From positions 34,675,554 through 34,739,553 of the forward strand of contig OX485803.1 in NCBI GenBank assembly GCA_950295325.1: a stretch of 64,000 nt of DNA, in the 5' to 3' direction. This stretch comes from Polytrichum commune. Taxonomy: Eukaryota; Streptophyta; Polytrichopsida; Polytrichales; Polytrichaceae. The notes under the pieces are model-generated. The model did no database searches and was not told the origin of the DNA. It saw only the letters and a program-made list of their open reading frames with translations. Every line of letters starts with the position of its first letter. Within the stretch, counting starts at the first letter, position 1. Below are positions 3,001 to 58,217 of this stretch, one piece after another. Position numbers and translations under genes: made by a program.

Positions 3001-5231
3001 ACACCTCCGATTGAGATGTTGTTGAACATTCTAGAATTTACATGCCACAAGGTACTCATAGGTGATGGCCTAACCCTCGTGCCTCCTAATCTCCGTGTGT
3101 GGGAGGCGTTCCCAATGCCCGGGGCCCTCACCCACACTAGGATCACTTGGGCCCTCTCACCAACAACACCACAAGTCCCGGGTGTAATTCCGGGGTCCCC
3201 CTTGTGCCCATGGTGTTTCCGGCACTCTTCATGGAGAGTTGTGCGACACGTTGGTTGCCGGTGCATCCAAGGTGCCTAGAGAAATTGGTGCCTGATTTCT
3301 TATAGTTTTCATGCAAACACAGTGAAGAAGAGTTTTTGAATATTTTGGTGTGGATTAGAGCAAAATGTCGCCGTCTGGAGAGCAAGGTTGATCCCCCTCC
3401 TTTCGTGAGATTTTTTTTTTTTTTTTTTGGTTTTGTTTTTTGGCATATAATTAAGTTAATCTACTATGGCAACGCTTCCAAAAGAAGCACTAACACCCAT
3501 TGAGTTTACTTGAATTAAACCCTACATTTATGTCTTTTAGTGGTTATCCTCCTACGTAAAACACTTCCAAAATAAGTGTTTATATTTTACAAGTTCCGGT
3601 ATAGTTTCAAAACTCTGTCCCATTTAAAAATAAAATAAAAGAAATGACAATGGATTATGGTGTTACGTGTGGAATGGAGAATGCATGTACGGATGAAATT
3701 TGTAAATTGATGTGGTGCAATAAAGTACAATTCCCAAACACAAACCAACGATGTGGGCCCTCCGACTCACCTCGGTCTCCAAGTGGCAATGGTTGGTCAA
3801 CAACCAAAGACCCATCGGAGGGAGGGCGGAGTGTGAATGGGTTGTGGGTGGAATGGAAGTGGGGTCCATATATACCCATGGGGAGGGTGCCAATTGGATG
3901 TGATCCCCCGCCACCCAACTCATGGATGCCACATATCCATGGGGGGACATGCAATGGACATATCGACTACTCATGAGCAACTGCCTAGCTTGTTGATTGT
4001 GTTGGTTGCAAACGACTTGGTCATGCGATTACTCTCCAACATTCAACTTCTAAACTAGACAACTATTGAAGAGCAGTCGACAATCTACGCAAGGTACAAA
4101 AAAAATTCCCTTTCCCCCTCTCGGTGTCACGTCCCTATCATAGACATGATGCAATGTGATGGACACTAATGGGAAATTCTTGATTATAGACGCTCAAGAG
4201 CAAATGTAAATCCATTGGCCGAGAAAGGTGTTAATGCAAAACTTTGTAAAATATAGTCAATCAACACTAAGAGAGAGAGAGTTGGGTTTTTCTTGCTTAG
4301 TGCTATGCTTACTGTCAAGCTTAGTCTTTGTGCAATACATCCTCTTATCAAGAGGCCAAACCATTCTTTTGCATATCTATGTACCTTTCAAAACCCGGGA
4401 GGGTGGGTGGGGTCATTCCTCGTGGCCGTGCCCTTGCCTAGCTATCAACTTACCATGGTCATTGTCTTCTCTTGGTATGTCTCTAAGAATGTAAACAACC
4501 ATAAGTAATCTATATTACAAAGGTTTTACCTTTGCACCCTTAACACAAAGTTATGTATTTCATAATCAAAGTATGCCATCTTCAAGTATAAACCTTGTCC
4601 ACTAATACTTCAAAGTCCTATCATTTCTCAAAATATTGCCTAACATTCCTCATCATTAGTGAATGTTTAAGCCCTATATACACATTATTTTTTGACAAAA
4701 GTTGATATGCAAAACCTAAATATGGTGTCAAATTTGTGAAGGGTTTGCCTCACCTGTGCCCATGCCACCAACCAAATCCAAAGAGAGGGTTAGTAATATA
4801 CACGAGGTGAATAACAACAGAACCCAACTGTTATCTATGTCACACAATAATGTACAACATGAACATACATTTTGCAAAAAAGAATACACATACTTCCATG
4901 GAGAACTCTACATGTTCCTTAGCCATTTGAACCTTGTGCATTTGAGGTTAGAGTTGGTTTACATACACCTCCCAACTCACCGATTTTGCATCACATGCAC
5001 TAAGCCCAAAAGTTACTTAAGGTAAACAACCACCTCGCTTTAGCCAGCAAAAGGAGGTCCTTATGGCCTCATTCTCTTAATATAGAGTTAGGTAATCCTT
5101 TGTGGCCATAGATGCAGATGTCATGATCTATGGTGGATATCCGTTAGTTGAGACTAACCTAACCCTAAAGTAACTTTACTTTGGGTTTAACATAAGTTAT
5201 TGTTTAGTTCGTTTATGATTAAGGCTATACA

Positions 5232-16426: not shown

Positions 16427-17713
16427 ATGGTCACAACTCGGAGCCAACATTATCGTTCTCCGTCTCCGGCATCATCGCAAGGTCGATCTTCGGACCTTTT
16501 GGACAGTAAACCCGTGGTAGCACCCGACGAGGCTTTTCAGCCTACTTCGGAGTGGGGGACTGTCACTCGGTCTCATGTTCTTTCGGTGGGATCCTTTGAC
16601 GAGATGGAGGAGGAGACGAGAAACGACATCCGGGATCGATTTTCTAATCGAGCGGGGATCATTTCCCTGCAGGGTTGAAAAATCCGGTTCAGAACATGGA
16701 TGAGGGAGAAACGTCAACACAATACCAACTTCAACAATTGGTATGCGTTCGAGCTTCTGCCACAACATTTGGAGCACGAAGCTCTCCAGATCTATGAGCA
16801 ACGGACAGATGCTCATTGGATGGAGTTGCGCCAGGTAGAGCGGTATTGAGAGAGTCGGGTTGAATTGGTTTCCGCATTGAAGGAAGGTGCAGCTTCCAGT
16901 TTGATGGCCGTTTCTAAGGTTAAGTCAGAGGTACCGGAGGGAGGTTATGTGGTGGATGTGGAGGGAGCTCCTCCTAGTGAGCCGAGGGCTACGAGTCCTG
17001 CTCCCACCGCGGCGACTACTTCGAACCCCATTATTCTATTGTCACGTTATGCCCAAGCTATCCAAACGGCATTAGCTTCTTTAAGAGCTCCGCCGGATTT
17101 TGATCCTCTATAGGAATTCCAACTCCATTTGCAGGAGGAATATGGAGGCTTCCGCCGCGATCGAATGCAGCGTATCCAGGACTTTCGACGGAAGAAAGAT
17201 GATACACCTCGTACCATGTACATAATGTTGGCGAGGTTTGCCAGCGAATCTGGAGGTGTGTTCGCGGAAAGTCAGTTGGTGAAGGTATTTTTGTTAAAGA
17301 TTGACAAACGCCTCATTGACTTAGCGTTGCCCAGAATCATCATGGGGTTTGGTGGTCGGACGACACTCGCAGAGGCATTTGCCGTGGTTGAGAAGTGTGA
17401 TCGTGCCTTGTGTCAGCACGACACCATTGACTTGGTGTCCATGCTAGTGAATTCTAGTAAATTCCGGAAGGTTCCGGTTGCGGCTGCGGGGTTGGCGGAG
17501 GCAGAGGTGGACAAGAGGGCCATGCTCAGAAGGATTGTCCTTCGAAGCAAAGACAAACCCAGACCGTCACTACTCCGAAGCGGAAACCATTTGTTCCCGC
17601 TAAGGGCTCGACGAAGGGGGCAGGTAATCAGTTACCCAAACAGTTGAGGTGATCTCATTGTGGGCGGACAAATCACACGGTGGAGAACTGCTTCGCTCTC
17701 CATCCAGAGAAAC
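16427..17713 (+). pseudogene. Ty3/gypsy gag, interrupted
   Basis: Successive frames (16427-16678, 16865-17113, 17129-17647) read as one gag broken by three stops. The N terminus begins MVTTRSQ, the middle contains a capsid-like helical region (QEEYGGFRRDRMQRIQDF through VEKCDRAL), and the C terminus carries a CCHC zinc knuckle at 17650-17691. In the knuckle the first Cys codon is now TGA, leaving SHCGRTNHTVENC. Gag packages element RNA into virus-like particles; the knuckle binds nucleic acid. The frame is followed by an insertion and resumes at 20173. This is the 5' gene of the methyltransferase-bearing gypsy element. Confidence 0.8.
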
Positions 17714-18417
17714 GTCCTTCTTCCGAACGGTGCCGTAGTGTAAATACGTACACTATATATATGTGTACGTATTTTGTGTTTCATTGTGATTCCTTCATTT
17801 GGAAAAAAGTAAAAGAGAGTAGAATTAGATTACCTTTGTGTTTACTTATAGTTATTCTTAGTGACTTTTAGTTTATCTTTTTTATTCTTATCTATTTTTT
17901 ATTCATAGTTACTCTTATTATCCTTTTAGCCTTATTTCTAGTTTTATCCTTAGTTTATATTTAGACCAATGAATAATTAGAAATCATGTGATGAGGATAA
18001 GAGGAGGAATTTTGGCCTTATCTCATATGTGTGGTTGAAGAGAAGAAAGGTTGGGGAGACAAACGTTTTTTTTGTTATGGAAATTCATTGTTGTGTTTTG
18101 TGTGGATTTGATGAGAATTGGAAAATAAAACATGCAAGAGTTGTGTTTCATGGGACTGTTTTCTCTTGAGTGATCACTTGCTTGAATGAGAGTTAGCTAG
18201 TTTGAGTGAAGGAAAGTCTGTTAGCTCTTGCATAGAAGGGTTGAGACTTCAACCGACTACAAAAAGACGGACAAATCTTTTGTTGGCAACAATCCTTTGA
18301 GGGAGTAACACTTATTGATAGATTTTTTTTTGTAAAGATTTGAAAGAGAGAAGAAATTTGAAGACAATTGAAGATTCGACGGTCCGGCAAGCAAAACCAG
18401 TTGCAGCCAGAAGCCCA
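17714..18417. other. Unclassified AT-rich insert or linker within gypsy gag
   Basis: After the zinc knuckle the gag reading ends in about 700 bases of AT-rich sequence that does not read as polyprotein. It starts near a perfect 33-bp palindrome (17742-17774, arms AAATACGTACAC). The last 30 bases before the CACTA element (from about 18385) may be gag again. I found no terminal repeats or target duplication that would define an insertion. Confidence 0.4.
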
Positions 18418-18689
18418 CACTACTAGAAAATCATGACCAAATCAACAGAAAATCAACAGATTTGTGTTGATTTGGGCACTGCAATGACCTATTTCACTGA
18501 ATTTGTAACTTCTTGCCAAAACCAACAGTTTGGTGCCTACTTTTTGTTGATTCGAGTAGTACAATGGCCAAATCAACAAAACTCACGCAAAATTAGAATC
18601 TTTAGAATATTCCATTATCCTTTTGGAAAAAAATTCGAGTATTTTGAAATCTTTTAAACCATTCGAATCTTTTGGAATCTTTTGGAATC

Positions 18690-19250
18690 TTAAATACTAC
18701 TAAATACTGTAAATAATATATTGCAGATTATACTATAAATAATATAGTGCAGGGTATACTATAAATAGTGTATGCAGATTATATTATAAATAGTATATTA
18801 CATAATAAAGTATAAATAGTATATTACATAACATAGTATAAATAGTATAATCTGTAATATACTAAAAATAGTATAATCTGTAATATACTTAAAATAGTAT
18901 AGTTTAAAATATACTATAAATAGTATAATCTGCAATATATTAAAAATATGATATGATATATTATACTATAAATAGTGTATTCTGAAATACATTATTTATA
19001 GTATAACTTGCAATATATTATTTATAGTATATTTGTGAAGATATGTTAATATTATATTTTAGAATATAAGTAAATACTACATTTCAGAATATATGTATAT
19101 AGAACATGTCAAAATATACGTAAATAGTATGTGTCAAAAAACACATAAATAGTATATTTCATAATATATATAAATAATCTATTTTAGGATATACGTATAT
19201 ACTAAGAATTTTTTAAATAGTATATATCAAAATATATTATAAATAGGTTT
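18690..19250. repeat. AT-rich degenerate minisatellite inside the CACTA element
   Basis: Units built around TACTATAAATAGTATA recur every 25-35 bases in both orientations, since the core is itself near-palindromic. From about 19275 to 19710 a different motif, GTTAACATTTATAAA, recurs about six to eight times. Both look like local expansion within a non-autonomous element. Confidence 0.8.
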
Positions 19251-19765
19251 GAAGTGTTCCTCACATACAGTCTACCCTCTATAAATGTTAACCTCCGGGA
19301 GTGGATCAAAGTTAACATTTATAAAGGTGTTAACATCTAACAATCATAAAATTATTTTTTTGAGCAATATACAAATCTTAACATTTATAAATATAAGCAA
19401 TTGTGAAGAGTGCTTGTGAGAGAATACCATTCATAAAATTGCAAACCCAATTAAAACTTTATTTCAATATCAAGTTTACAAATCATGGGTGAAGTATGAA
19501 TCAATGGTTCTTTGGTAATTGAATGTGTAGTCTTTATCATCCACCTCATGGTTGTATTTCATTTGTTAACATTTATAAAGTTAAATTTACAAAGAAGGGA
19601 GTACCATTTTGTTAACAATTAACACGTTTAACATTTATAGTGTGCAATATGTGGGGAGTAGAAGAAAGTTAACATTTAGAGAGGGTTAACACTTATAGGT
19701 GTAACATTTATGGAGGGTGCACTATAAAAGGGTTTAAAGCACTCCCTTTATATCAAGAAAGTGTG

Positions 19766-19835
19766 TTGACTTGGTGGTTAGAACCACCAAGTGGGAAGCC
19801 CAAGGTTGGGGGTTTCAATCCCTTGGCCCGCAACT
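19766..19835 (+). other. tRNA-like (SINE-head-like) sequence
   Basis: TTGACTTGGTGG at 19766-19777 resembles a pol III box A, and GGTTTCAATCC at 19811-19821 resembles box B; the spacing of about 33 bases fits a tRNA. I see no complete cloverleaf, so this is not called a tRNA gene. A tRNA-derived SINE captured inside the CACTA element is the simplest explanation. Confidence 0.4.
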
Positions 19836-20172
19836 ATGACCTCTAGCCTAGCTTAGCAAGCCTAGGCGAGTATGTTGGAGTTGATGGGGACGTAGTTTGT
19901 GCTGTGGTAGTAGTCTGAAATTAATTTTTTTGCCCGAACATCCAGGCCGTAAAAAATAAAATTTTCCGGAAAATCCGGAAAGTAAAAAATTGATTTTGAT
20001 TTTGATTTTTAATTTATTTTTAATTTTTAATTTTGTTGGTAAACTTTTGATGACCAGATCAACAGAACAGATCAACAAAACCGTGTTACAGAGTGTCCAG
20101 GTCAACGCGTCCTAAGTAACAACCGCGACCAACACTTTTTTGTTGATCCGGACGCAAAATTTTCTACTAGTG

Positions 20173-20695
20173 CCAGTGTTTTCCTAAAGCGGATCCTTCT
20201 CTACTCAACAACGGGAAAAGAAGTTGGAGGCAAAAATTGGTGTCTTGGAGGAGAGGTTCAAAACTTTGGCGTCATCCAACCAAATTTTGGACTTACCATC
20301 TACCTCCGGAACTAATGCTAGTTCTTCCACTCCAGATTATTATATGTTCGGAGCTTCTGGACAGGTGGTGAGTTCCGTAGCGGTGACACGTGCTCAAACC
20401 GTGTCACAAGCCACGCCTCCGACCATAGGGGAGTCTGTGGACAACTTACGCGCTCGGAAGAATGCTCCTGCGGATCAGATTGGCCAGGCACGTCTTCCAT
20501 TGTCTTTTGGATTGGCTGATGCTGCCCAATCTATCAGTAGTCGTAATTTGAGCTTGGAGGCTTCGAATCCGGAGACCAACGTGGTGCATACTTTGGCATC
20601 CAAAGTGTTGCACACCCCTTTGTTCACAACGATGGAGTGGTCGTCATCGATCGGATGTCCAACCCGCTAAGGTTTTTCACCTAGCAGGTAGGATT
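20173..20695 (+). pseudogene. Gypsy gag C terminus / linker
   Basis: Directly after the CACTA element the polyprotein frame resumes. A charged, probably coiled-coil stretch (KKLEAKIGVLEERFKTLASS) is followed by a Ser/Thr/Ala-rich linker to about 20670, then a frameshift into the protease frame. A stop near 20185 also breaks it. This part probably lies between nucleocapsid and protease. Confidence 0.6.
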
Positions 20696-21325
20696 TTGGA
20701 GGGAAAGGCATCCCCGTCTTCTTTGATTATGGCTCAAGCCACCGCGGACATTCCTACCACGGAGGATCCTACAGAAGCCGCCAAACTACGAGCGAGGCTT
20801 GCGGCGGAGCTCATTGCGTCTTTTGACGCACACGACTCAGATGGCCAAGAGCCAACCTCATCTCATAATTCACCAGACTTTGCAGGCGCCGCTTATCTTT
20901 CAGATGTAGTTGCTCGACCTGCTCGCGAGCGTCGAGGCATTCGACCTGGCGTTGTACGGATGGTGAATGATTTTGGCATTTTGATGGTCAGTCGGGCTGG
21001 TGGCAACCCTATTCGAGTTGCTCCACAGTGTGTGATGATGGATTCAGGAGCACAACCTGTTATGATCGGCAAAAAGTTGGCGCAGGCATTGCGGTTGACA
21101 GCCGACGACTTGGCTCCATGCCCATTTACCATCGTCACATCTATTGGCCACGTGGAGCGGGCCACTGGTTATACTCGGGAGCCATTACAGCTTAGCTTCC
21201 AAGTGAAGCCTGGAGATTCACCCGCACCTCTTCTTCTCATGTGTGTGGTGATGGATGCGACCAACTATGACATTTTAGTTGGTCAGCAAGCACTTTACAC
21301 CCTCGACTTTGGTTTGGACAACTAG
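20696..21325 (+). pseudogene. Gypsy aspartic protease region
   Basis: A 209-codon open frame. The second half carries a retropepsin-type active site, MMDSGAQPVMIG, with the catalytic DSG triad about 120 residues in. It is followed by the pattern DYDILVG-like (NYDILVGQQALYTLDFG) that closes many retrotransposon proteases. The enzyme would cleave the gag-pol polyprotein. The frame ends at a TAG right after the protease core. A further open stretch (21389-21619, PLPPWRDQFLRLVP) leads on to the methyltransferase and is probably the linker. Confidence 0.8.
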
Positions 21326-21679
21326 ATTGAGGAGGCTTAGATCCGACCAGGTTGGTCGGCTGGAGACGGTCGTAGGAAATTCATTCCTGTGGCATTCGCA
21401 GCGGCTGCCACCATGGCACCATTATCCATGGTTTTTGGATGCAGTGCTATAGTGGATACATTGCCTTATGGATCTGCATTATTAGAGGAAGCATTGGCAT
21501 TCATGGGGGATGTTGAAGACCCACAAGAGATGGCACATAGGCATACCTTGGTACGCCACCCTAAGGACCCTCTACCTCCATGGCGTGATCAATTCCTCCG
21601 GCTTGTTCCAACGGTGTGAGAATATTGTCTTTTCTCTCAGTTCTACCACACCAGTCATATCGAATAGTCTATCCACATT

Positions 21680-23250
21680 GGCACGCCCCATTTTGTTGTG
21701 CCCTCCAGACACTGGGATTACTTTGGTGGAGCTGTTTGGAGGCATTGGCACAAGATTAGCAGCCGTATTGGAGGCTGGCCTTACGGTCAAGCGGTATGTT
21801 TATGTGGACAACTCTCAAGTGTCCACCCGTGTGGCTTGTCATCATCTTCACCAGTTGATGGTGTTGTATCCTCAGTAGTTCACGGGTAGGTCACTTAGTG
21901 CATTTTAAAAACGACGTGTGGCATAATATAGAGAGGATTAAAATCATTTGAAATAAAAATTATAAAGGAATTCCAAATAATTAAGGGGCCATTAAATGTA
22001 GACAATTCCATTATAAGTAAGTTAGATGGACATAAACTGTGGGCCATTATTTTTTGTAAAATTAATATAGGGGCTGAAGATAAGGATCCTAGAAGGTATG
22101 TTTAGTATGTTTGCTATGGTCTCCTATGTGTTTTCTTCATAACTTTGTTTGCAATGATATTATTGTTTGCACCTTTCTTTGTTTCCATGGTTTCCCTTAA
22201 CACTCGTCAATGCGTTAGGAAGTAGATTAGCTTTTATTACTTAAAAGGAATATAGAATATAAAAAATTGCAGTGACTTGGACAATATAAGTAATGGAAGG
22301 GTGCAAACAAATGGGCCATTTTTGAAATTTAAGTAATTATAGGGAGGCTTTAATTCAGCCCTTGAAGGTAAATAGCCCCAAAACAAAAATCCCCCAGCCG
22401 CACGTGGTGCACAAAAATGCCTTAAAATGACCTACCCGTGCAGCAGTTACACCCGACTGCCATTCATGGGTGTTTTTCACGTCTCCCTCGTGATGTTACA
22501 TTCATCAGTGAGACCGACTTACGACACTTGGGTCCAGTGGATATGGTGATTGCGGGATGGCCTTGCCAGGGCCATTCACGTTTTGAACCAGGTGGAGGAC
22601 TAGAGGATCCCATGTCTAGTCTATTTTGGGACCTCATGCACCTCATGCAGTGGTGGTTATCCCACCAACCTTCCCCTCTAGGGTATATTTTCGAGAATGT
22701 ACCTTTGTTGGGAGACTCTCGGGACAAGGTGTTGGAAGGCGATCATCATGTTCGTCAACACCTTGGAGATCCCATTTTTGTGGATGCCGTGAGCATTGGT
22801 TCTTATGCCCACCGGCCTCGGTGGATTTGGACCAACCTCACATCGTGATCTACTTTAGCTGCAGCATTTCCTGTAGTGCCTCCACCTTTTGATCAAAAGG
22901 TGGATGACATATTGGATCCAAACCAAACTTCTTTGCCGGTTGTTCGAGATGATTTACCCCCGTTGGCATTGGTCAATAAAGTGGGGGCACCACGGCGGGC
23001 CTTTCCCACATTTATGACAATTCTACAATCCTTCGCGTTTCGCGATTGGGGCCGGGTACGGTGTGGGATGTTCACACCAAAACCCACACCGAACCAATGG
23101 CTGACGAACGGGAGCGTGTTATGGGATTCCGCACTAACACCGCCGCAGCTCCCGGCCTTTTTGAGGGCCAACGACGCTTCGTGGTGGGCCAAGCCATGGA
23201 TCTTCATACCATGGTGTGGATTGTTGCTTTATGCCTTTCATTGCAAAGGC
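21680..23250 (+). pseudogene. Cytosine-C5 DNA methyltransferase domain inside the gypsy polyprotein
   Basis: The canonical m5C-methyltransferase motifs appear in order: motif I TLVELFGGIGTRL (about 21716-21757, binds S-adenosylmethionine); motif IV GWPCQGHSR with the catalytic Cys (PCQ at 22561-22569); motif VI FENVP (ENV at 22693-22701); motif VIII HRPRWIWTN (about 22808-22835); and motifs IX-X, ERERVMGFRT and GQAMDLHTMVW (about 23115-23220). Without the MITE at 21881-22440 the domain spans about 1 kb, compact like DNMT3- or DRM-sized catalytic domains, with a short target-recognition stretch between motifs VIII and IX. It lies between protease and reverse transcriptase, in the same direction, and so was part of the element's polyprotein. 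It is broken by the MITE, a stop after motif VIII and a frameshift before motif IX. The order I-IV-VI-VIII-IX-X is that of DNMT1, DNMT3 and bacterial enzymes; DRM-type plant enzymes are permuted. Confidence 0.88.
21881..22440. mobile_element. MITE inserted in the methyltransferase domain
   Basis: The ends are inverted repeats: CACGGGTAGGTCACTT at 21881 and the complement of CACGGGTAGGTCATTT at the right end (22440). The flanks are CAGTAGTT (21873-21880) and CAGCAGTT (22441-22448), an 8-bp target duplication with one mismatch. Removing the element restores frame between the two methyltransferase parts. The 8-bp (possibly 9-bp) duplication suggests a hAT- or MULE-type MITE. It has no coding capacity. 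Confidence 0.9.
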
Positions 23251-24507
23251 ATCGTGGTGACCAATGGTTGTCTCTGGGGGCAGAGGACTCTGGTCAAGGG
23301 GCACAGCGGTCCATACCCATGGAGGAGGGAATTCACGCCATGGTTGGAGAAGCCGAAGGAATTTTTCAATTCGAGCAGCAAGTGATGGAGGAGCTTCGAG
23401 CTCAACATTTTTACACGGTTTTGGCTTTTTCGCCTCCGGTGGTGGCTTCATCATCACATATTGGTGGTGATGAAGAATTGCCAGACTCTAGTACTAGCAC
23501 TGAGACTGGGGGCATGGTCAATGCGTTTTCCTCTCATTAGCAATTAGAGTCTGTGCCAGCATCATGTGGTTCTCCTTTGGTGGAGAGGGAGACTACAGAG
23601 TTTGATGATTGGCCATTGGAATTAGGCCCTCATCTCATTGGTGTTGAGGCACGAAAGGTATGAGCATTCATTCGCTCGTATCGTAGGTGTTTTGCTTTTA
23701 GCCTTCAGGATCTTGAAGGTTATAAAGAAAAAACCTATCCACATTCAGTTGGAGGACGACCATCCCATTCTTCGGAGACCTTACAGGCTCAGTGTTTCCG
23801 AGCAGATTGGCGTTCAGGCTCGTTGCCGAGAGCTGTTGGCAGCAGGGCTAATCGAACTTTCCAACGGGGAGTATGCTTGTGTTACAGTTATGTCATCGAA
23901 GAAGGATATCTTTGGCAATTGGACGAAGAAGCGGATGTGTGGGGATTACCGTCCAGTTAATTGGAAGACCAAGTCGGATCGGTATCCCATGCCGATCCCG
24001 GAGGAGTTGTCCGATGTCATTGGATTTTCTCGGGTCTTCAGCACCTTGGACTTGAGATCCGGATATCACCAACTTCCATTACTTATGGGAGATCGGGTGA
24101 AAACTGCATTTTGGGGAGTTGATCATGATGATAAGGATCAACTATACTATTGGAAATTTCTTCCATTTGGCCTAAAAAATGCGCCTGCTGAGTTTCAGAG
24201 AGTGATGGACCAAGTCCTCTCTGGCTTGCCTTTTGCTCGGTGTTACATTGATGACGTGATCATTTTCACCAAAACACCACAGGAGCATGTAAAACATCTT
24301 CAAGCCGTTTTTGAGCAATTACGGCGGTGGGGATTGCACTTGCACCATGGCAAGTGCAAGTTTTTCCATGACCGACTAGCATATCTAGGTCATATGATTA
24401 TTCTAGGAGGTATTTTGGTACAACAAGCTAAGGTGGATGCCTTACAGAAGATCTCGGCACGGATCGATGTGCCGAGACTTCGTGCATTCTTGGGCTTGGC
24501 GAATTAG
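23251..24507 (+). pseudogene. Gypsy reverse transcriptase
   Basis: After a linker (23251-23600), the frame 23638-24507 gives a Ty3/gypsy reverse transcriptase. Visible motifs are RMCGDYRPVNWKT, FSTLDLRSGYHQ (first catalytic Asp), FLPFGLKNAPAEFQRVMD and CYIDDVIIF (the YIDD box, about 24244-24258), then KCKFFHDRLAYLGH and LRAFLGLAN. It copies element RNA into cDNA. A frameshift near 23660 separates the start (IRSYRRCFAFSL-type) from the rest, and a TAG at 24505-24507 followed by a TGA near 24518 separates it from RNase H. Confidence 0.92.
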
Positions 24508-25977
24508 TATCGGTGATTCAGCAAGAACTTTAGCTTAATCGCCAAGCCTCTCACCATTCTCACAAGCAAGGACCAACCTTGGACTTTGGGTCGTGAACAA
24601 CAGCAAGCATTTGAAACATTGAAGCAAAAACTAGGTGTAGCTCTAGTGCTTCGACGTCCGGATGTCTCCAAATCCTTCCAGTTGCATACGAATTGGAGTT
24701 CATTGGATTTGGGAGCAGTTCTCACTCAGAAGGATGATTTTGGCTGGGAGTATGTTGTTGCTTACGCGTCGCTAATGGCAGATGCTAATTATTCGTCCTA
24801 CGAGGGAGAAGCATTGGTGGCGGTATGGGCTATTGTCCATTTTAGGCCGTATCTTTATGGTCAGCACTTTATTTTAGTGATTGACCATCAGCCGTTACGG
24901 TGGCTCATGAAATCGGATAACCTTACTGGCAAGCTTGCCAAGTGGGCTTTGTTGGTTCAAAAGTATGACTTTGAGGTGGTACATTGTGCTCGGGTTACCA
25001 ACATGGATGCAGATGGACTCTCACGCAATCCAAGTCCTTCGGATGAGGACTTGACCGGGGCCAGGTGGCATGGAGATTGTGATCGAGAGGCGGCTCCAGG
25101 TTGGCACGCGGCTGCTTACCTCACTTTATTTTCTGGTGCATCTATTGAGATTCTGATAACATCGGATGATGAGATTGATCGGCCTCAAGCTATTGCGGAC
25201 ATATGGGAAGATCTTCCCGTATTGTATAAGCTTCAACAGGGTACCTTTCTTTTGTCTATTTCGGCAATGGAAACGAATAGGATTGGACATCGAATAACAA
25301 GGTTCCATTGGGAGAGCGGTTTGTTATTTCGATTATGGCCAGATAAGATATGGCGTATTGTCCCAAGGCCGGACCAGAGGGCCTTCTTGGTACGACAAGT
25401 GCATGAGGAACTTGGCGATTTTGACATACGTAGGACACATTCGATGCTACGTGGCCAATATTGGTGCACTGGCATGTATAAGCAGGTGGCTGCTTATATC
25501 GGGAGGTGTGAAGTTTGTGACCGGGTCAGGTCTAGCTTTAACACCTTGTCACCTCAGTTACAACTCTTACCTATCATGGGATTGGGCTACTGTTGGTCGC
25601 TAGACTTTGCAGGGCCGTTGGTTGTTACATCACATGGTGCAAAGTACGTGTTAGTGATGCTGGAGCACTTTAGTAAGTGGATTCAGCTTGTTGCTCTACC
25701 CCAAAACTCTGCAGAGTTGGCCGCGGCCGCCTTTTTGGATTGTGTGTTGGCACGTTTTGGAGCACCGGCTGAGGTGTTGACGGACCAAGGGAGGGAGTTC
25801 CTTGGTGTCTTTGAGGAGTTGTGGACTAAGGCGCTCATAGATCACCGTAGCATTTCTCGGGATCATCCGGAGCCAGATTGTTTGGCTGAACGAGTTGTTC
25901 AGACAACCAAACGTGGCTTGAGGAAATATGGATTACTTCGGGGAAGCCACCGGGAATGGGACCTTATGTTGTCATGA
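24508..25977 (+). pseudogene. Gypsy RNase H and integrase core
   Basis: The 463-codon frame from 24586 begins in the connection domain and runs through RNase H (TNWSSLDLGAVLTQ, YEGEALVAVWA, VIDHQPLRWLM, NMDADGLSR). The integrase follows: HHCC zinc finger (VHEELG, RTHSML, GRCEVC) and DDE core (SLDFAGPL; LTDQGREF; AERVVQT for the Glu). In the first RNase H motif the usual Asp is Asn (HTNWSS). The frame stops at 25977 near the end of the core. Domain order PR-RT-RH-INT is Ty3/gypsy, not copia. Confidence 0.9.
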
Positions 25978-26441
25978 ATTGCTATGGGCTATCGATTTAG
26001 TAGGCAGACCTCTTTGGCATCCTATAGCCATATTAGTTATTGTATGGATGTGAGCCTATACTCCCGAGTTTTATTCGAGAAAAACTATCTCCTATTGTGG
26101 ACTTGGATGACCCAAATATTTGGGCAGAGTGTTTGCAGGAGCGGGCTCAATTCTTCCAGAGGGCCATGTCTATGGCCATGGATAATTTGTCCATTGTTTA
26201 GAACCGTGACACATTGCGTTATGCACGCATTCGTAGTGGTGCTTACCGACCTCAGTTGCAGAAATTTCGGCAAGGGAATTATGTTTATCTCCAACGTGAG
26301 GCGCCTACGACATTGGATGTTAAGGCGGGGCGCACTATCCTTCGGGTGAAAGAGGTGTTGCCGAGTGGTTTGTTGTTGTTGGAAGGCAAGGATGGCAGGA
26401 AATGTCGCGAGCATATTAGTTTGCTATGTTTATTTTGCTAA
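25978..26441 (+). pseudogene. Gypsy integrase C terminus
   Basis: Across two frames the sequence continues the integrase: a WAECLQERAQFFQRAM-like helix near 26125-26165 and, in 26214-26441, a basic GPY/F-like module (KFRQGNYVYLQ, TILRVKEVLPSGLLLLEG). No chromodomain is visible. The coding part of the element ends at about 26441. Confidence 0.75.
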
Positions 26442-26692
26442 TTGATGTTGATGACGACACTCGATCTATTGTGTTTAACGATCTTAGTTTACACGACAGG
26501 GCGGTGAAATTAATTATGTGGAATCTGATGGCCAACCATCAGAGGCGATTAAGGATGGGGCTCACATTGCACCCAGCCTACAATTCCTTGGGATGACGTT
26601 CGCTACACTAGTTGGTTGCGGAGCAATCCTTCATTATCCATACCCTTGGATTTACTTGGTCCTAGCTGCTTGGCGGGACTCTATAGTCAGCT

Positions 26693-26780
26693 AAGAGGGG
26701 TATGTTGAGATGTGTTGTTCATGTGTAACCTTGCTATGTTTTAGTGTTATTTGTTAGTGGTGGTTGGTACTTAAGCTGCA
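26693..26780 (+). repeat. Polypurine tract and start of gypsy 3' LTR
   Basis: AAGAGGGG at 26693-26700 is a plausible polypurine tract, followed by TA and TGTTGAGATG at 26703, which looks like an LTR start. I cannot pair it with a 5' LTR, and the LTR may be truncated after about 80 bases. Confidence 0.5.
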
Positions 26781-28680
26781 GTGACACACGATCGGTATTT
26801 ACACGACAAAGCTGATATGCAGGAGAAGGACGCAACAAGGTGCATGAATAGTGAGGCAAATGATGCGGCTGATTTGAATGAAGACAAGTCAATCGACACG
26901 GAGCAAAAAATCAATGTGGTAGGCGAATCTTCGAGGTTTTTGTCTTTTCGCGAGAGGATGAAAGGATTATCGTTGCATCGTCATCCATTGAAGGATCGAA
27001 TGTCAACCATAAACCCCCACCCTTAAGCGTCGTAGTCCGGGTGAGAGCCAATGATTCACACGTACTTAATTACCTCCTCTTCCCATTGAACTCAGCACTG
27101 AGGCACCAGAGGTATCCATGCCACGCCACAACTTCACTTAAAGAGGAACCAAGTTACAAACATTAAAAAATGCCCTTCTCCCGCGTGAAATATATTCATA
27201 CCTTCACTAGTTGAGTTCCAGACACACCACCCTATCAACACATTCCCACAAGTTCTTTCCTAACATAATACAGTACAATGTTAACTCCTACGCTACACCT
27301 AAGCTGGCCTCCCTAATTAATTATCCAATGCTCTAGCATGTTAAGTGGATGGCCTTAACCCAACTCCCAAAACCTCAACTGCCGCCCTTCATTCCTGCTC
27401 TTCCGACCAACAACTCCAGTATTCTGCCTAGGTACAGAGTAGTGTTGATCTGCATCAATTGCACTCACCCTTGAATAGGCCCAGTTCACCCAGGGCGCCC
27501 ACCGAGTGCAGAGAGCAGCTTCGCTGGGAAAATGCCTCTCTACCTCCCCGAATCCTCTTGGTAGCTCCAAGCCTAGCTCCTTGTTGTCTTCCCCTTACCT
27601 CAAACGGCTTCACCTCTGCCTCAGTATACACCCAAGGGAACAACTCCCGTCCCCTGTTGCTGCATTCTCGGAAGAGCCCAGGCATGCTTCAACTCACTGT
27701 GGCGAAATGCCCAGAGGTGAATTGCTCCTCCGTATTAACCACCTTTTCAGAGGAGAGCCTTGCGCAGATGCATTGGACCACGACAATCTCCCTCCAAAAA
27801 TTCACTTATTTAGCTCTCAACACCTTCACAACTGCGTGGAATTAGTGCCCTGATTGTTACCTTAAGCAGCTGGAATTCAACATGAATGAGTGTTGATCTG
27901 GCCCTCTTGCATTCTTCGACACACAAATGCTACTTTCTCCGCCCAGCTTGGCCACTGGAGGAAAGAGCCTCCCGACAGAGCTGCAACTGCAATACCTCAC
28001 AGCGATTCCTGACCCTGCATCAGCCTTTGCCGACCTTTCCCTCACAAGCAACCAGCTCCCTGTCGCCACTTTGATTGCAGCGATTCCGCCACTTAATCTG
28101 GCAGGGTCTTCACCCTCTGTGTAACAGCCCCAACTAGCAGGCCACCGTCCGAACACCTCTGATTCAGATTGGCACTTCCGAATTCAGGAGCTAGAGATTG
28201 TAATTCGCTCCTGCCCAGTCTACGAAACCCACAACCAACGCCTTGCTGGCCTCGTATGGTGAATGCTAAATCTCGAATCAAAAATTTGGCAGGGACATTG
28301 CCCCACTGTCGCCGCTCCTTGTTTTTGGTGTTCGGTGAAACGAGAGAAAATGAGAGAGGATGCCCCTGAACTTGCCGGACCTCTCTCCTGGGCACCCCAG
28401 AAATCTAGATGCCTCATCCCTTCAGAACAAGACCCCCTTCCTTAAACAGGCAGACCCCAAATCCGAGACCAACAATATTTTTTAAGCCCGACACCCATAA
28501 TCCTAACCTAAATCCCTTGACTTTAAGTGTCACATAAAATCTAATTGACTAATTACTTGTTTTTGGCCTTTTCCCCATACATTTCACACAGTCTCACGTA
28601 AAACTTAAATCCCCTTAACTTTTAAAATTCTAGAACTCTCTAGCTTCTAACTAATTCAATCAAAACAGTACTGCACCCGT
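26781..28680. repeat. Repeat region, partly shared with 46.5-50.6 kb
   Basis: Several overlapping frames of 60-130 codons occur on both strands with no domain. The stretch near 27010-27050 (CCCCCACCCTTAAGCGTCGTAGTCC...) matches 46495-46535, and further short similarities follow (..CTAAGCTG.CC.., ..GTGGATGGCCTTA..). I read this as one copy of a dispersed, gene-poor repeat, perhaps an LTR or LARD-like element. No gene is supported. Confidence 0.45.
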
Positions 28681-30540: not shown

Positions 30541-31140
30541 AAACGGCCACAACTTTTGCTCACAAGCTTCAATTGGAACAATTCCTAATAATCTAAAAAG
30601 CTAAGAACAAAAAATATAATTCATCTAATTATCAAAGCAACTATATGGATCTTTTTAAAGATATGAGCTTACAAAATCAGCTCTTCGAATTCAAGAGGCA
30701 GATGGGATACCTTCATTCAAACATCCATAATTTTTTCATATTAACTTAGATTCTAGCAAGCTTAGACTTTCTAGAAACCTTAAAATCATATTTATAACTA
30801 TTCTAAATATAAAAACAACTTCATGCTTTTTCTTACAAGTATGAACTTACAAAGTCAGGTCTTATATTTTAAGAGGCAGTTGAGATGCCTTCATTCAAAC
30901 ATTCATAACTCTCACTCCTTAAATATGACTGTGACAAACTTATGTTTTCTAGAAAGCTAACAACAAAAATTATAATGATTTTGAATATCAAAGCAACTGG
31001 ATCATTTTTCTTTTAGTTATGCGCTTGCAAAATCAGCGCTTGTAATTTAAGACGCAGCTGAGATATCTTCAGTCAAACACTCATAACTTTTGCTCCCTAA
31101 CTTTGATACTAACAATTCTAGGCTTTTTGAAAAGATAACA
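30540..31140. repeat. Tandem repeat, period about 178 bp, about three copies
   Basis: A motif of the form TATG.(A/G)CTT.CAAA.TCAG..CTT followed by AAG(A)GCAG and TTCATTCAAAC starts at about 30663, 30840 and 31018, a period of 177-178 bases. Copies are roughly 70-75 percent alike by eye. A partial unit continues to about 31140. Confidence 0.75.
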
Positions 31141-34847: not shown

Positions 34848-35891
34848 TCAAGAAGAAGAGGTACCGCAGCATAAGTACTTCTTCAGGGTCATAGCATTCC
34901 ATAACGACTTCATGTGAGACTTCATGTGGTACAACGTCCACGGATGTTTGAAAAACTCGTCCACCGTCAACCGTTGTCGTGGATCCACAGTTAGCATTTT
35001 GGAAACCAGGTCTTTTGCACTCGGGGAAATCATATCCCACACCTGATAGGATGGTCTTGAAAACCGATCCCCCTCAAACTCCACTTGGGCATCGCCCAAC
35101 TCACGAATATGATTTATATCCATTATGTGGCCCAAATGCTCGAAGGGATGTGTTCCACTGAGAAGCATGAACAAGATACACCCTGCACTCCACACATCTG
35201 CTTCACAACCGTAGCGTCGCTCAAGGACTTCAGGCGGAAGGTAGATTTTGGTGCCAACGATATTCCCCTCCACGTCTTCTCCACGACGAATAAACCTCGA
35301 CAATCCAAAATCAATAAGCTTAATCGTCAGGTCGACTTTTGTGTCGGCGGCCACGTCCGAAGAGATCATGAGGTTTTCAGGCTTAACATCCAAGTGCGCA
35401 ATCCCAATTGAATGGCACGTTCGAAGACCACGCATAATTTGGTACATTATGTCCGCGGCCTCTTGTTCAGAGTGGCCGGAGGGACGTCTTTCGCTAATGC
35501 GAGTATAAAGCTCTCCTCCGCTGCAGAGATCCATCACTAGACACACACAATAATCGTCCTCATACACCTCGTGGAGCGTGACGATGTTGGGGTGGCCAAC
35601 TAACTTGAACAACATCTGGATCTCTCTCTGCAGCGACTCGACATTGAATTCTGCATTGTCATGTTTTGAAACCACCTTGCATGCATATGGTCGATTGGTG
35701 AGAATGTTGAAACATTTATAGGTCGAGCAGCTGGATCCATCTCCCAGATGCTTGTCGAAGCGATACCGGTCACCTATGCACGGTGTACAATCAAATGGCA
35801 AGACTCTCTGCGAAGATGTCGTAGGCATTTTTGGGTGATGTTTTGGGAAAGCATCTTGATGCTTCTTGGTAAATTGGTTCACAACCTCCAT
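34848..35891 (-). CDS. CaMK/CDPK-like Ser/Thr kinase, intronless, no EF hands
   Basis: One uninterrupted 347-codon frame. The kinase domain is at residues 43-319: glycine loop LGDGSSC (49-55), Lys72 in YACKVVSK, Glu90, catalytic loop HLDVKPEN (166-173), DFG (194-196), PPE (219-221) and DVWSAG (232-237). It most resembles CDPKs and the small PEPRK/PPCK-type kinases, and it stops after the kinase domain, with no autoinhibitory helix or EF hands, so calcium would not control it directly. The catalytic loop has Leu where most kinases have Arg (HLD for HRD), and the third loop glycine is Cys. It is therefore a non-RD kinase, possibly of altered activity. The tail has a Cys-Cys pair (341-342) that could be lipid-modified. 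The first Met (35891) is taken; Met22 is an alternative. Lack of introns and stops suggests either a functional gene or a young retrocopy. Confidence 0.88.
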   Translation of the reverse strand: MEVVNQFTKKHQDAFPKHHPKMPTTSSQRVLPFDCTPCIGDRYRFDKHLGDGSSCSTYKCFNILTNRPYACKVVSKHDNAEFNVESLQREIQMLFKLVGHPNIVTLHEVYEDDYCVCLVMDLCSGGELYTRISERRPSGHSEQEAADIMYQIMRGLRTCHSIGIAHLDVKPENLMISSDVAADTKVDLTIKLIDFGLSRFIRRGEDVEGNIVGTKIYLPPEVLERRYGCEADVWSAGCILFMLLSGTHPFEHLGHIMDINHIRELGDAQVEFEGDRFSRPSYQVWDMISPSAKDLVSKMLTVDPRQRLTVDEFFKHPWTLYHMKSHMKSLWNAMTLKKYLCCGTSSS

Positions 35892-47255: not shown

Positions 47256-47497
47256 AATACTATAAATTGAGGGTTCAAGGTGCCATTTTTGCCTCCACTG
47301 ACATAGTGTGTCTCAAGTCTTTTGATTCTCCTTTGAGGAGTGAGGATTGAATGCGTGAGACCCGAATACAGAGGATACTTTGTCCAATCTAGTGACTGTG
47401 AATTAGGGTTGCCCTTGTGGCACTCTTGAACAGGACCTAGTATGCGATCAAAGTTACTTGCTCTAACTTGTTTGTATTTGCAGGTTTTGTTGAAGTC

Positions 47498-48861
47498 ATG
47501 CCACGCCGAAATGATGCATGGGATCATTGGTACGAGGATAAGGGGATGGTTCCCGGTAAATCACAAAGGCAGGTTAAATGTAGGTTTTGCCCGTTCGTCA
47601 TATCTTACCGAGGAAATAGAATGTTGGCCCACCTTGGTTATAGACCTCCTGTAGGGGGTGCTTGTGATGTTTCCACATGTAGGATGGTACCCCCGCATAT
47701 TAGGGTCTTGTTTGAACATTGCGGAGGCATTGTGCCCTTACATGTAGGCATTGTAAATGAGGACTCTCCGGTGCCAGATATTGTACCTCTGGAGCCTATT
47801 ATAGCGGACTCCGTAATTAGTGAAACAGAGCCTTTGCTTATGTCCCAATCCACTCAACATTCTGATGTTGTGATATATGGCACACCTCCTCGTGAACTAC
47901 GTCAACTCAACATAACGGAGGGGTTCAATGTGTCAACAAAACAACTCCTTGATAGAGCATGGGCAACGGCTTTTTATGAAGCTAACATTCCTTTCAACAT
48001 TGTGAGACATCCTGCATTTGTTCATGTTGTGCGTGAAACTGCCCGTCATCGAATGCCAGCCTACACACCACCATCGTACAATGCCATCCGTACGAAGTTG
48101 TTAACTGATAAAAAGGTTGACCTAGATAGGCAAGTGAAGGAGAAGATGGGGAATTCCGTTGAAAAATACGGTGTTACAATATGTTGTGATGGATGGGACA
48201 ACGTGCAAAACCGACCTCTCCTAAACGTTCTCCAATGCGGCACAAAGGGAGACGTTTTCTTGGGTACCATTGATACCACGGGAAATCACAAGGATCATGT
48301 ATACGTTGCTGCTCAAATTCAACCATTTGTGGAAAAGGTTGGTCGACATAATGTGGTCCAGATTTGCACCGACAATGCCCCAGTTATGGCCTCCGCTGCT
48401 CGCGACTTGATTCAAGCAAATCCCGATCTATATTTTCAAGGATGTGCTGCGCATTGCCTAGATCTCCTCTTAGAAGATTGGGGGAAGGAGGAATGGGTGA
48501 AAAAGTTGGTAAAAAAGGCGCGCCATATTTGTATTTTTATCAAAAACCATCATGCTCTTAAGCTATATTCCGGAGGTTGTCACCAAATCTCTCACTCCGC
48601 CTACCTGTAGAGACCCGTTTTGCAACGAACTTCATCATGATAGATCGTCTTCTTCAAGTACGCAATGCTTTGGAAAGAATGGTGGTTGATGAGGATTGGC
48701 CTACTCTAATGCGTGATATGAGGAGGAGATCTCGCACCTCTTACATGAAGGGCTTTGTTGTGCGAAGCTTTATACGTTCTGATGGATTCTGGAACACGCC
48801 GAAGGTGCTGGATCCGGCCCCTGGAAGGGTGTTGGAGGGTAATCTAGCAATCCCACTTTGA
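47498..48861 (+). pseudogene. hAT-family transposase, frameshifted and truncated
   Basis: The frame from the ATG at 47498 to 48610 gives 370 residues. An N-terminal BED-type zinc finger (QVKCRFCPF, then MLAHLGY) comes first. A DUF659-like catalytic region follows with YGVTICCDGWDNVQNRPLLN (first Asp), VVQICTDNAPVM (second Asp) and CAAHCLDLLLED. A frameshift near 48575 moves reading to 48577-48861 (LSLRLPVETRFATNFIMIDRLL, then FWNTPK), where homology ends. The hAT dimerisation domain is missing. A 3' splice site (TTTGTATTTGCAG) ends at 47483, so the leader may contain an intron. It cannot encode active enzyme. Confidence 0.88.
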
Positions 48862-52192: not shown

Positions 52193-52514
52193 TGTTGTAG
52201 AGGTAGGCATCTATACTGTAAAGATAGATGGCCACGTAGCAACCTCGAGATATGTAGAGGCTTAATTAGGAGCCATCAGTCCTAATTAGCCTCGGTCCAG
52301 GGTCCGAGGAGGAGTTGGACGATTATCCCAACGGCCGAGTATTTAGGAGGGAAGCCGCCATTGTAATCAGGTAGTCAGGAGTATCTGTCAGACCATTAAG
52401 ACTACTAAGTATGTACTCACAGTATATAAAGGAGGCCTCTACCTGAGGACCTACACTTCATTTTTGAACTGTTATGCTGCTGCACTTTCTACCTGATTTC
52501 TCACCTTCACAACA
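52193..52514 (+). repeat. Copia 5' LTR
   Basis: Starts TGTTGTAGAGG and ends TTCACAACA. A TATA box (AGTATATAAAGG) lies near 52423. CGTTATCAACATTG follows at 52515 as the likely primer site, the same layout as the candidate LTR at 13091-15290. Confidence 0.95.
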
Positions 52515-53877: not shown

Positions 53878-54975
53878 TTGTTGCTTAGAAATGCAGAGTC
53901 AAGGCCGGCTCGGGAGGTGCATGTTACCGAACCAACTATGAAGGAGGTTCATGCCACATCAATCATCCAGACTGAGGCACATACAACCCAAGCACCGAAA
54001 CGGCCTCCCAAAGGGTTCACCAAAAAGTTTACATCTAAACCTACCAGGTACGTGGCAAGGGGGACGCCCAAGAAGCCTAAACCCTCTCATTCTAAACCTG
54101 TTAAGGGTAACTACCATAAATGTGGCCGCAAGGGCCACTATGCAAAGGAATGCCGGGCTTCGGCATATGTTGTAGAGTTATATAGAGAATTACATAAACT
54201 TAAAAACCAACCCTGGCATAATTATAACCTGGATGTACAAACTGATAATAATCCAGATATTGAGAATTTTATGGCATTAAGAGGCAAATCAGAAAATAAG
54301 GCTAACATAGCCCTATTAGATAGTGCCTCTACACATACAATTCTCACGAATCCTAAATTCTTTGAATTCAAAGATAAAGAGACATCATGGTACTATTGTA
54401 ACCTAGTTACAATGGCCGGAAGCCGAAAACTTAAGTTTCGGGAGGGCCGGGCAGTAATTGGCCTGCCCGGGGGATTCCCCCTCATATGTGAACGAGCAAT
54501 GTATGCTCCGGAAGCCCCTCGTAACCTGATCAATTCCAAGGACTTAAGGGCTAGCCAAATCCACGTGTCCACAGCGTTGGACAATGCTGAAGAGGTCCTG
54601 GAACTCAGGCAAGGGCAGAGCCTCCTTGCCACCGCTCATACGGGAGCCGAAGGCCTATATAAGATAGTTATAGAGTCTATAACATCTAGCCCCATCTCTC
54701 TGACAGATGAGGAGGAAGTTTGCATGGCAGCCTGGGACAAGGGCTCACGGCTAGATGGCCATAACCTGGCGACGGGAGTATCAAGAGATACTACAGCCAA
54801 ACAAGACTTATGGCATAGGAGGTTAGAACATCCAAGGGTAACGGTATTAGGTAGGATGTTACCCCTAACCTTGGGCCATAATTTGAGCTCATCAGATGCT
54901 CACAAAATGCATGAGTGCATTGCTTGTATTAAGGGAAAATTCAGTAAAAAAACCTTCAAAGTGGCAACTTCCTAG
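53878..54975 (+). pseudogene. Copia nucleocapsid, protease and pre-integrase
   Basis: A 365-codon open frame. The zinc knuckle reads YHKCGRKGHYAKEC with Tyr in place of the first Cys. The protease active site is IALLDSASTHTIL (the D-S-A form). The GAG-pre-integrase zinc module follows: DLWHRRLEHPRVTVLGRMLP and HKMHECIACIKGK. The long open frame in an otherwise broken element suggests modest age. Confidence 0.9.
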
Positions 54976-55878: not shown

Positions 55879-55978
55879 ATCTAAACCGGGTACAAGTCTA
55901 GAATTTTTAGCACCAGAAACCTTAACTCTGAACCCGGATCCACCTATTGGTTTATCAGAAACTGAGGTCACTAGATTA

Positions 55979-57895: not shown

Positions 57896-58217
57896 TGTTA
57901 TAGAGGTAGGCATCTATACTGTAGAGATAGATGGCCACGTAGCAACCTCGAGATATGTAGAGGCTTAATTAGGAGCCATCAGTCCTAATTAGCCTCGGTC
58001 CAGTATCCGAGGAGGAGCTGGACGATTATCCCAACGGCCGAGTATTAAGGAGGGAAGCCGCCATTGTAATCAAGTAGTCATGAGTATCTGTCAGACCATT
58101 AAGACTACTAAGTATGTACTCACAGTATATAAAGGAGGCCTCTCCCTGAGGACCTACACTTCATTTTCGAACTGTTATGTTGCTGCACTTTCTACCTGAT
58201 TTCTCACCTTCACAACA
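57896..58217 (+). repeat. Copia 3' LTR
   Basis: Same length (322 bp) as the 5' LTR and about 96-97 percent identical, with the same TATA box. It begins TGTTATAGAGG, with one change in the fifth base. Confidence 0.95.

What the first reader, a model, noticed from the sequence alone, without database searches (positions are those of the whole stretch)
21680..23250. DNA methyltransferase domain inside a Ty3/gypsy polyprotein
Seen: m5C-methyltransferase motifs I, IV (PCQ), VI (ENV), VIII and IX-X in the correct order and spacing, in the same direction as and between the protease and the reverse transcriptase. Known: I recall reports of retrotransposon-borne cytosine methyltransferases in dinoflagellates and Klebsormidium; host plants silence elements by cytosine methylation. 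Inference: an ancestor of this element expressed its own methyltransferase, which could modify its cDNA or shape its own silencing. This would be a land-plant case with a defined domain position.
Basis: partly seen in the sequence, partly recalled or inferred. Interest (0 to 1): 0.92.

Follow-up and report, generated by a model that had tools for sequence, protein, structure and literature searches.

The report
Plant retrotransposon carrying a DNA methyltransferase
The window holds a broken copy of a many-copy plant retrotransposon family that carries its own DNMT3-type DNA methyltransferase in front of a probably leaky stop codon and the reverse transcriptase, with relatives in Marchantia and Sphagnum, so that the question of what a jumping gene does with a methylation enzyme can be tested in a model plant.

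Summary
Confirmed, and larger than reported. The window holds a decayed Ty3/gypsy copy with a DNMT3-type cytosine methyltransferase (PF00145, 30.4 bits, cut-off 22; best solved relatives DNMT3B/3A) between protease and reverse transcriptase, on the same strand. It is not a one-off: the 408-Mb home genome has 123 scored PF00145 matches (352 candidates), 29 in open frames of 1190 aa or more. Relatives occur in named land plants (Marchantia, Calypogeia, Sphagnum). Catalytic residues are mostly kept; dN/dS is 0.12-0.41 where dS is at least 0.02. New anatomy: (1) methyltransferase and RT share one frame, parted by one UAG followed by CARYYA, the tobamovirus-type leaky context, in 49 of 49 alignable junctions of 50 examined; (2) the integrase ends in a PHD finger; (3) copies are A1-ORFs-B1-A2-B2 split direct repeats with TG..CA ends and 4-bp target duplications, although the integrase is DDE-type. 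Closest known: KnitGypsy-Dnmt3 of Klebsormidium (2018), whose enzyme gave no methylation in yeast (inconclusive). Most likely use, inferred: Gag-PR-DNMT made in excess over RT-IN-PHD, methylating the element's cDNA before integration. The window copy is dead, with C-to-T decay concentrated at CG and CHG.

The parts
16427..17515 (+). Gag region (broken), starts at an ATG
   Evidence: tblastn to L001 Gag: 16427-17140 49.6% and 17021-17515 53%; no Pfam Gag match
17578..17739 (+). nucleocapsid / zinc-knuckle region
   Evidence: 44% to L001 residues 195-248
17740..20217 (.). sequence inserted between zinc-knuckle region and protease region; includes AT-rich repeats 18703-19039
   Evidence: L001 is continuous here; repeats
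20660..21595 (+). aspartyl protease and linker
   Evidence: 55% to L001; gag-asp_proteas E 0.002, below cut-off
21603..21875 (+). DNMT first part, motif I
   Evidence: 52% to L001, 83% to P0030
21881..22440 (.). MITE-like insert with CACGGGTAGGTCA inverted ends; target duplication 21873-21880 / 22441-22448
22441..23052 (+). DNMT middle part, motifs IV (PCQ), VI (ENV), VIII (HRPRW)
   Evidence: PF00145 30.4 bits; 84% to P0002
23049..23537 (+). DNMT last part, motifs IX-X, and C-terminal tail (frame change at about 23049)
   Evidence: 79% to P0018, whose last residue falls on 23537
23538..23546 (+). stop TAG followed by CAATTA (UAG-CARYYA context)
23541..26414 (+). RT-RNase H-integrase (frame change at about 23725); PHD finger absent from this copy
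   Evidence: (Pfam)
26410..26499 (+). stretch 92% like the B repeat of the other subfamily (S2), next to the integrase end
26703..26808 (+). B repeat (U3-like) of subfamily S1; A1, A2 and B2 not found in the window
   Evidence: 91.5%

Best explanation
It is a degenerate copy of a DNMT3-carrying Ty3/gypsy-type retrotransposon family of bryophyte-type plants. Open members encode Gag, zinc knuckles, protease and a DNMT3-class methyltransferase in one frame, then a single UAG-CARYYA stop, then in the same frame RT, RNase H, DDE integrase and a PHD finger. Shown: the parts, their order and frame, the conserved stop context, mostly kept catalytic residues, purifying selection, young copies, split direct repeats and 4-bp target duplications. 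Inferred: most ribosomes stop at the UAG and make Gag-PR-DNMT, a minority read through and make the RT-IN-PHD part; the DNMT is therefore packaged at the level of a structural protein and methylates the double-stranded cDNA in the particle or nucleus before the integrase, guided by its PHD finger, inserts it. Pre-methylation would make the newcomer resemble host DNA or set a chosen silencing state. The window copy is long inactive and was probably itself methylated by the host.
For: PF00145 over cut-off (L001 45.9 bits; 9 of the 10 relatives scanned, the tenth, P0136, being a C-terminal piece). Profile ranking among the 49 PDB sequences at E 0.001 or better: DNMT3A/B/C 47-58 bits, DRM-type 32-39 (two of these chains are named only 'DNA methyltransferase'), bacterial and other 22-27, no DNMT1 or CMT. 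123 scored genome matches of 352 candidates; 29 of 123 in frames of 1190 aa or more (recounted). PR and DNMT over cut-off in one frame in P0055 and P0056. 49 of 49 alignable junctions TAG+CARYYA, with CAATTA, CAGTTA, CAATCA and CAACCA all inside the motif; background 4 of 1834 TAGs in the window, the junction among them. In L001 the first Met after the stop is residue 117, inside RT. PHD 39.9 bits, cut-off 24; homologous in 9 of 10 3' stretches of own copies, one of the 9 with a stop inside the finger. A1-ORFs-B1-A2-B2; target duplications rechecked. dN/dS of DNMT 0.12-0.41 for dS of 0.02 or more. PC Cys 66 of 68, ENV Glu 66, Asn 67, motif VIII Arg 64 each. Window C-to-T type changes: CG 18/138, CHG 17/128, CHH 29/619, A/T transitions 14/1131. 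SymbioDIRS-Dnmt3 enzymes methylate CG de novo in yeast (PMC5890265 section 10).
Against: No activity, transcript, particle or readthrough product was measured. The nearest described enzyme, KnitGypsy-Dnmt3, gave no methylation in yeast; the authors call it inconclusive because human DNMT3B failed too. DNMT is under weaker constraint than RT in the same bins (0.41/0.22/0.12 against 0.215/0.103/0.061), three very close pairs give 0.68, and dS is saturated between subfamilies and undefined for 14 of 91 pairs. Some relatives have no stop between DNMT and RT (P0136, P0160, P0163) or have the DNMT between RNase H and integrase (P0164, P0168, P0169), so the leaky stop is not universal. One Marchantia gene model (P0159) joins DNMT to RT in one protein. 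Protease and zinc-knuckle matches in L001 are below Pfam cut-offs (20.5 against 24.3; 13.1 against 20.8).
Confidence: 0.68

Rival explanations
1. The enzyme acts on the host side: it methylates neighbouring chromatin or the element's own integrated copies, damping transposition so that host and element coexist, rather than marking cDNA.
For: The window copy carries a CG and CHG decay signature. de Mendoza et al. name a slowed transposition rate as one possibility.
Against: CHG decay is at least as well explained by host enzymes; near-identical A repeats show recent activity.
Confidence: 0.25
2. The downstream frame is reached by splicing or re-initiation and the UAG is a true terminator; the CARYYA context is inherited without function.
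For: Marchantia model P0159 joins DNMT and RT, possibly by a predicted intron; no readthrough was measured; the copies share ancestry.
Against: 49 of 49 alignable junctions keep UAG and stay inside CARYYA in two subfamilies and in L001; same frame; first Met of L001 ORF2 only at residue 117.
Confidence: 0.15
3. The DNMT is an inactive passenger or serves only to bind nucleic acid or to methylate RNA.
For: KnitGypsy-Dnmt3 and SymbioLINE-Dnmt gave no methylation in yeast (inconclusive by the authors' own words); for SymbioLINE-Dnmt they suggest RNA. Motif X differs from DNMT3A.
Against: Catalytic residues kept in 64-67 of 68 domains; dN/dS well below 1; DNMT3-type kinship.
Confidence: 0.12
4. 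One-off chimera, chance match or a host DNMT3 gene next to a transposon.
For: The window copy alone is broken.
Against: 123 scored matches in the genome, RT homology behind the DNMT in 46 of 48 fetched copies, relatives in several land plants.
Confidence: 0.01

Closest known systems
KnitGypsy-Dnmt3 of Klebsormidium nitens (de Mendoza et al. 2018, PMC5890265; abstract and sections 6, 9, 10, 11 read, figures not seen)
   Same: Gypsy-type pol with a Dnmt3-class, non-rearranged DNMT in the coding region; repeats described as 'the same as that of a DIRS retrotransposon'; purifying selection on the DNMT (Ka/Ks below 0.2 there)
   Different: Here: land plants; DNMT closes a Gag-PR frame in front of a conserved UAG-CARYYA stop; PHD finger on the integrase; 4-bp target duplications shown. 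The main text of that paper has no 'PHD', 'read-through', 'Marchantia' or 'Sphagnum'.
SymbioDIRS-Dnmt3 and SymbioLINE-Dnmt of dinoflagellates (PMC5890265)
   Same: Retrotransposon-borne DNMT; DIRS-type repeats and more than one domain order in the SymbioDIRS case
   Different: Tyrosine recombinase or LINE machinery; here rve integrase
Gag-pol stop readthrough in retroelements such as Tca2, and tobamovirus UAG-CARYYA (motif recalled; papers seen only as search listing with abstract starts)
   Same: In-frame stop between Gag-type and Pol-type frames
   Different: Here the upstream product also carries a DNMT
Host plant DNMT3 (Physcomitrella; PMC6453930, passages seen)
   Same: DNMT3 class, non-rearranged
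   Different: Plant DNMT3 genes carry a C-terminal DUF3444; no such domain was listed for the family members scanned

Membership tests
DNMT3-class C5 methyltransferase | PF00145 with PC and ENV motifs | tested here: met
   the most distant relatives P0164, P0169 (no match) and P0168 (16.9 bits) miss the PF00145 cut-off and are known only by my family profile
DNMT3-class C5 methyltransferase | closer to DNMT3 than to DNMT1/CMT, DRM or bacterial enzymes | tested here: met
   PDB profile ranking; a full phylogeny with host DNMT1/CMT/DRM/DNMT3 was not made (references not held)
DRM (rearranged DNMT3) | motifs VI-X before I-V | tested here: not met
   order I-IV-VI-VIII-IX-X in window and relatives
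Ty3/gypsy | PR, RT, RNase H, then rve integrase | tested here: met
   protease match weak
Ty3/gypsy | TG..CA ends and short target duplication | tested here: met
   10 copies examined: 8 with exact 4 bp, 1 with one mismatch, 1 without a 3' end in the stretch
Ty3/gypsy | same long terminal repeat at both ends | tested here: not met
   A1-ORFs-B1-A2-B2 instead
DIRS | split direct repeats | tested here: met
DIRS | tyrosine recombinase | tested here: not met
   Pfam of L001 ORFs shows rve and no phage integrase
KnitGypsy-Dnmt3 | Dnmt3 inside a Gypsy coding region with DIRS-like repeats | tested here: met
   against the text of PMC5890265
KnitGypsy-Dnmt3 | common descent with the Klebsormidium element | not tested
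   no Klebsormidium sequence held
UAG-CARYYA readthrough | UAG-CARYYA between two coding stretches in one frame | tested here: met
UAG-CARYYA readthrough | readthrough product is made | not testable with these tools
   needs an assay

The most novel reading that the evidence does not exclude
A land-plant retrotransposon lineage that carries both an epigenetic writer (DNMT3) and a chromatin reader (PHD on the integrase), sets their ratio by a leaky stop so that the writer is made at Gag level, and integrates from a permuted circle-like DNA by a DDE integrase acting at the B|A junction: a self-methylating element that writes its own epigenetic state before it enters the genome.
Probability: 0.33. 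Interest if true: 0.92.

Novelty: new variant of a known kind. Interest (0 to 1): 0.8.

Why it matters
[quoted passage not shown] here they are in bryophytes, among them the model liverwort Marchantia. Why a retrotransposon keeps a DNA methyltransferase is called unclear in the 2018 paper. A model land plant with copies of its own makes the question directly testable, and the leaky-stop position predicts a dose: the enzyme should be made at Gag level.

Tried and rejected
Chance or one-off chimera: rejected. Bacterial or phage origin: plasmid and phage records give 26-34% identity in the 5 rows listed of 37 and of 175 records, and none covers 80% of the query. Viral contigs: three scans, no relative. 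First genome-contig scan: none of 17 stretches; second: 1 of 256 (L001, a contig filed under a cyanobacterial MAG, which I take for plant contamination). Classical LTR pair in the window: none, later explained by split repeats. No tRNA and no Rfam match over threshold in window or L001.

Not done: count of DNMT-less copies of the same lineage, and the genome-wide codon tally at the junction (genome search busy); a tree with host DNMTs; naming the host. Seven large contigs suggest n = 7, which I recall for polytrichalean mosses; this is unverified.

Full report
Observation. The finding holds. Piece 22438-22845 of the plus strand hits PF00145 over its curated cut-off (30.4 against 22 bits) and DNMT3B/DNMT3A in the PDB (E 3.2e-10). 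The motif-I and motif IX-X pieces score nothing better than E 1 alone, but relatives bridge them: relatives pass from window position 21875 to 22441 without a gap, and change frame at 23049-23052. The 560-bp insert at 21881-22440 is MITE-like, with inverted ends and an 8-bp duplication that differs at one base. Protease lies upstream (weak match) and RT, RNase H and integrase downstream, all on the same strand.

Family. A search with the window piece gave 51 proteins, up to 84% identical over the longer alignments, from 693 candidates. A profile search gave 187 from 8000 scored candidates, 120 of them listed. A search with the long frame of L001 gave 37 from 8000. Names given by sources include Marchantia polymorpha (5 proteins), Calypogeia fissa (1), Sphagnum troendelagicum (2) and the charophyte Closterium sp. 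NIES-53 (1, a partial match).

Home genome. The window lies in a 408-Mb assembly with seven large contigs. PF00145 gave 123 scored matches out of 352 candidates, all listed as over the cut-off. 29 of 123 lie in open frames of 1190 aa or more, nine of exactly 1386 aa (recount). The search works in six frames and does not tell host genes from elements; of the 48 copies that I fetched, 46 show RT homology behind the DNMT (L028 and L048 do not within the stretch held). The window copy is not among the 123.

Anatomy of open copies. L001 (9285 bp, ends overlapping by an exact 127 nt) holds Gag, zinc knuckles, protease and DNMT in one frame that ends with TAG at 3489-3491. It goes on in the same frame with RT, RNase H, integrase and a PHD finger (PF00628, 39.9 bits, cut-off 24). 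Zinc knuckles and protease are seen by eye and colinearity; their Pfam scores in L001 are below cut-off. Protease and DNMT both pass in P0055 and P0056. The window copy is colinear with L001, except for two inserts and the missing PHD end. The PHD region is homologous in 9 of 10 own 3' stretches, one with a stop in the finger; the tenth has no element end there.

The stop. I examined 50 junctions: 48 own copies (8 best-scoring, 40 taken from the table, not at random), the window and L001. One (L028) could not be aligned. All other 49 read TAG followed by CARYYA: S1 subfamily, which includes the window, CAATTA 16, CAGTTA 7, CAATCA 1; S2 subfamily CAATCA 23, CAACCA 1; L001 CAATCA. In 34 of 50 (counted from the rows) RT homology starts within 16 nt of the first stop after the DNMT, in the same frame; in most others an earlier stop or a frame change intervenes. 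In the window 4 of 1834 TAGs have this context, as many as chance gives (4.8 in shuffles), so the motif means something only because of its place and conservation. The first Met of L001 ORF2 is residue 117, inside the RT. That UAG-CARYYA is leaky is recalled knowledge (tobamoviruses). Protein ends agree in part: of 106 relatives that reach the end of the DNMT, 4 run on into RT motifs by a simple motif test (P0136, P0159, P0160, P0163), but many of the rest are cut by short contigs or have the DNMT behind the RT.

Terminal structure. 5' and 3' stretches of ten copies were compared. Nine show a direct repeat A1/A2, 97.9-99.8% identical. It is not a plain LTR: a second repeat B flanks A2 on both sides, giving A1-ORFs-B1-A2-B2, with a G-rich purine tract just before B1. 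The outer ends are TGTCACG.. and ..CACGACA, with 4-bp duplications TTAT, GAAG, ATTG, TCAT, CCAC, TGTC, ATGC and GAGA in 8 of 9 copies and TGGC/CGGC in the ninth. DIRS-like repeats with Gypsy domains are what de Mendoza et al. report for KnitGypsy-Dnmt3 (legend text). My inference: B+A is the LTR, and the integrated form equals a two-LTR circle opened at the palindromic B|A junction. The low A1/A2 divergence shows recent insertion; no absolute dates are given.

Selection and catalysis. Among 14 copies with both segments open (13 own and L001, of 49 examined), NG86 dN/dS of the DNMT is 0.41 (34 pairs, dS 0.02-0.1), 0.22 (5 pairs, 0.1-0.3) and 0.12 (35 pairs above 0.8, saturated); 3 pairs under 0.02 give 0.68; 14 of 91 pairs have no defined dS. 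RT in the same bins gives 0.215, 0.103, 0.061 and 0.60. Choosing open copies biases these values downward. In 68 family domains the PC cysteine is kept in 66, ENV Glu in 66, Asn in 67 and Val in 60, and the two motif VIII arginines in 64 each; five of the 68 are open copies chosen by me.

Lineages. A FastTree of 68 family domains rooted on a partial human DNMT3A puts Marchantia, Calypogeia and Sphagnum together with unnamed relatives, the two home subfamilies with L001 and others, and a separate clade (P0105, P0164, P0166, P0168, P0169, P0170) in which P0164, P0168 and P0169 have the order RT-RNase H-DNMT-integrase-PHD. Some deep support values are low and the root rests on one partial sequence. 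So the DNMT sits at more than one place in related elements, and the PHD finger is shared by both arrangements.

Decay. Against the commonest base of 25 S1-like copies (one of them, L009, S2-like at its junction), the window copy has C-to-T type changes at 18 of 138 CG, 17 of 128 CHG and 29 of 619 CHH sites and A/T transitions at 14 of 1131; over the 25 copies the rates are 4.3, 3.9, 2.3 and 0.7%. This is the expected mark of past CG and CHG methylation, from which I infer host silencing.

Literature. PMC5890265: abstract, sections 6, 9, 10, 11 and passages. There, SymbioDIRS-Dnmt3 enzymes methylated CG in yeast, while KnitGypsy-Dnmt3 and SymbioLINE-Dnmt did not, called inconclusive. PMC12344493: section 5 and passages (DNMT3 in LTR 'Copia' and DIRS elements of streptophytes and dinoflagellates). 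PMC6338049, PMC6453930 and PMC12477816: passages only. I found no report of DNMT-carrying retrotransposons in bryophytes in searches, of which I saw listings and abstract starts apart from the papers named; they cover only openly licensed PMC papers.

Verdict. A real, multi-copy, recently active family; a new variant of DNMT-carrying retrotransposons, with a leaky-stop arrangement and a PHD finger that I did not find described in what I read. The mechanism (cDNA self-methylation) is inferred.

Noticed in passing
26410-26499: Right behind the integrase end, where PHD should follow, the window copy has a stretch 92% like the B repeat of the other subfamily: a sign of recombination between subfamilies.
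   Followed up: partly
52193-52514 and 57896-58217: Direct repeats of 322 bp, 96.6% identical, around Copia-like ORFs (by eye) at 53878-57646: probably a Copia element.
   Followed up: no
47468-48610 +: 380-aa ORF that looks like a BED-finger/hAT-type transposase (by eye).
   Followed up: no
34848-35891 -: 347-aa protein kinase ORF without introns, resembling calcium-dependent kinases (by eye).
   Followed up: no
30592-31125: Three tandem copies of a 178-nt unit, 70-75% alike.
   Followed up: no
L001 1-9285: Contig ends overlap by exactly 127 nt: either an assembly collapse of repeats or a real circular form of the element; filed under a cyanobacterium MAG.
   Followed up: partly
P0043 (protein): DNMT start fused directly to integrase: probably a deletion derivative.
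   Followed up: no
L002-L049, DNMT and RT segments: Between subfamilies DNMT differs about three times as much as RT in dN (0.28 against 0.09): relaxed or diversifying change, or exchange of the RT part between subfamilies.
   Followed up: no
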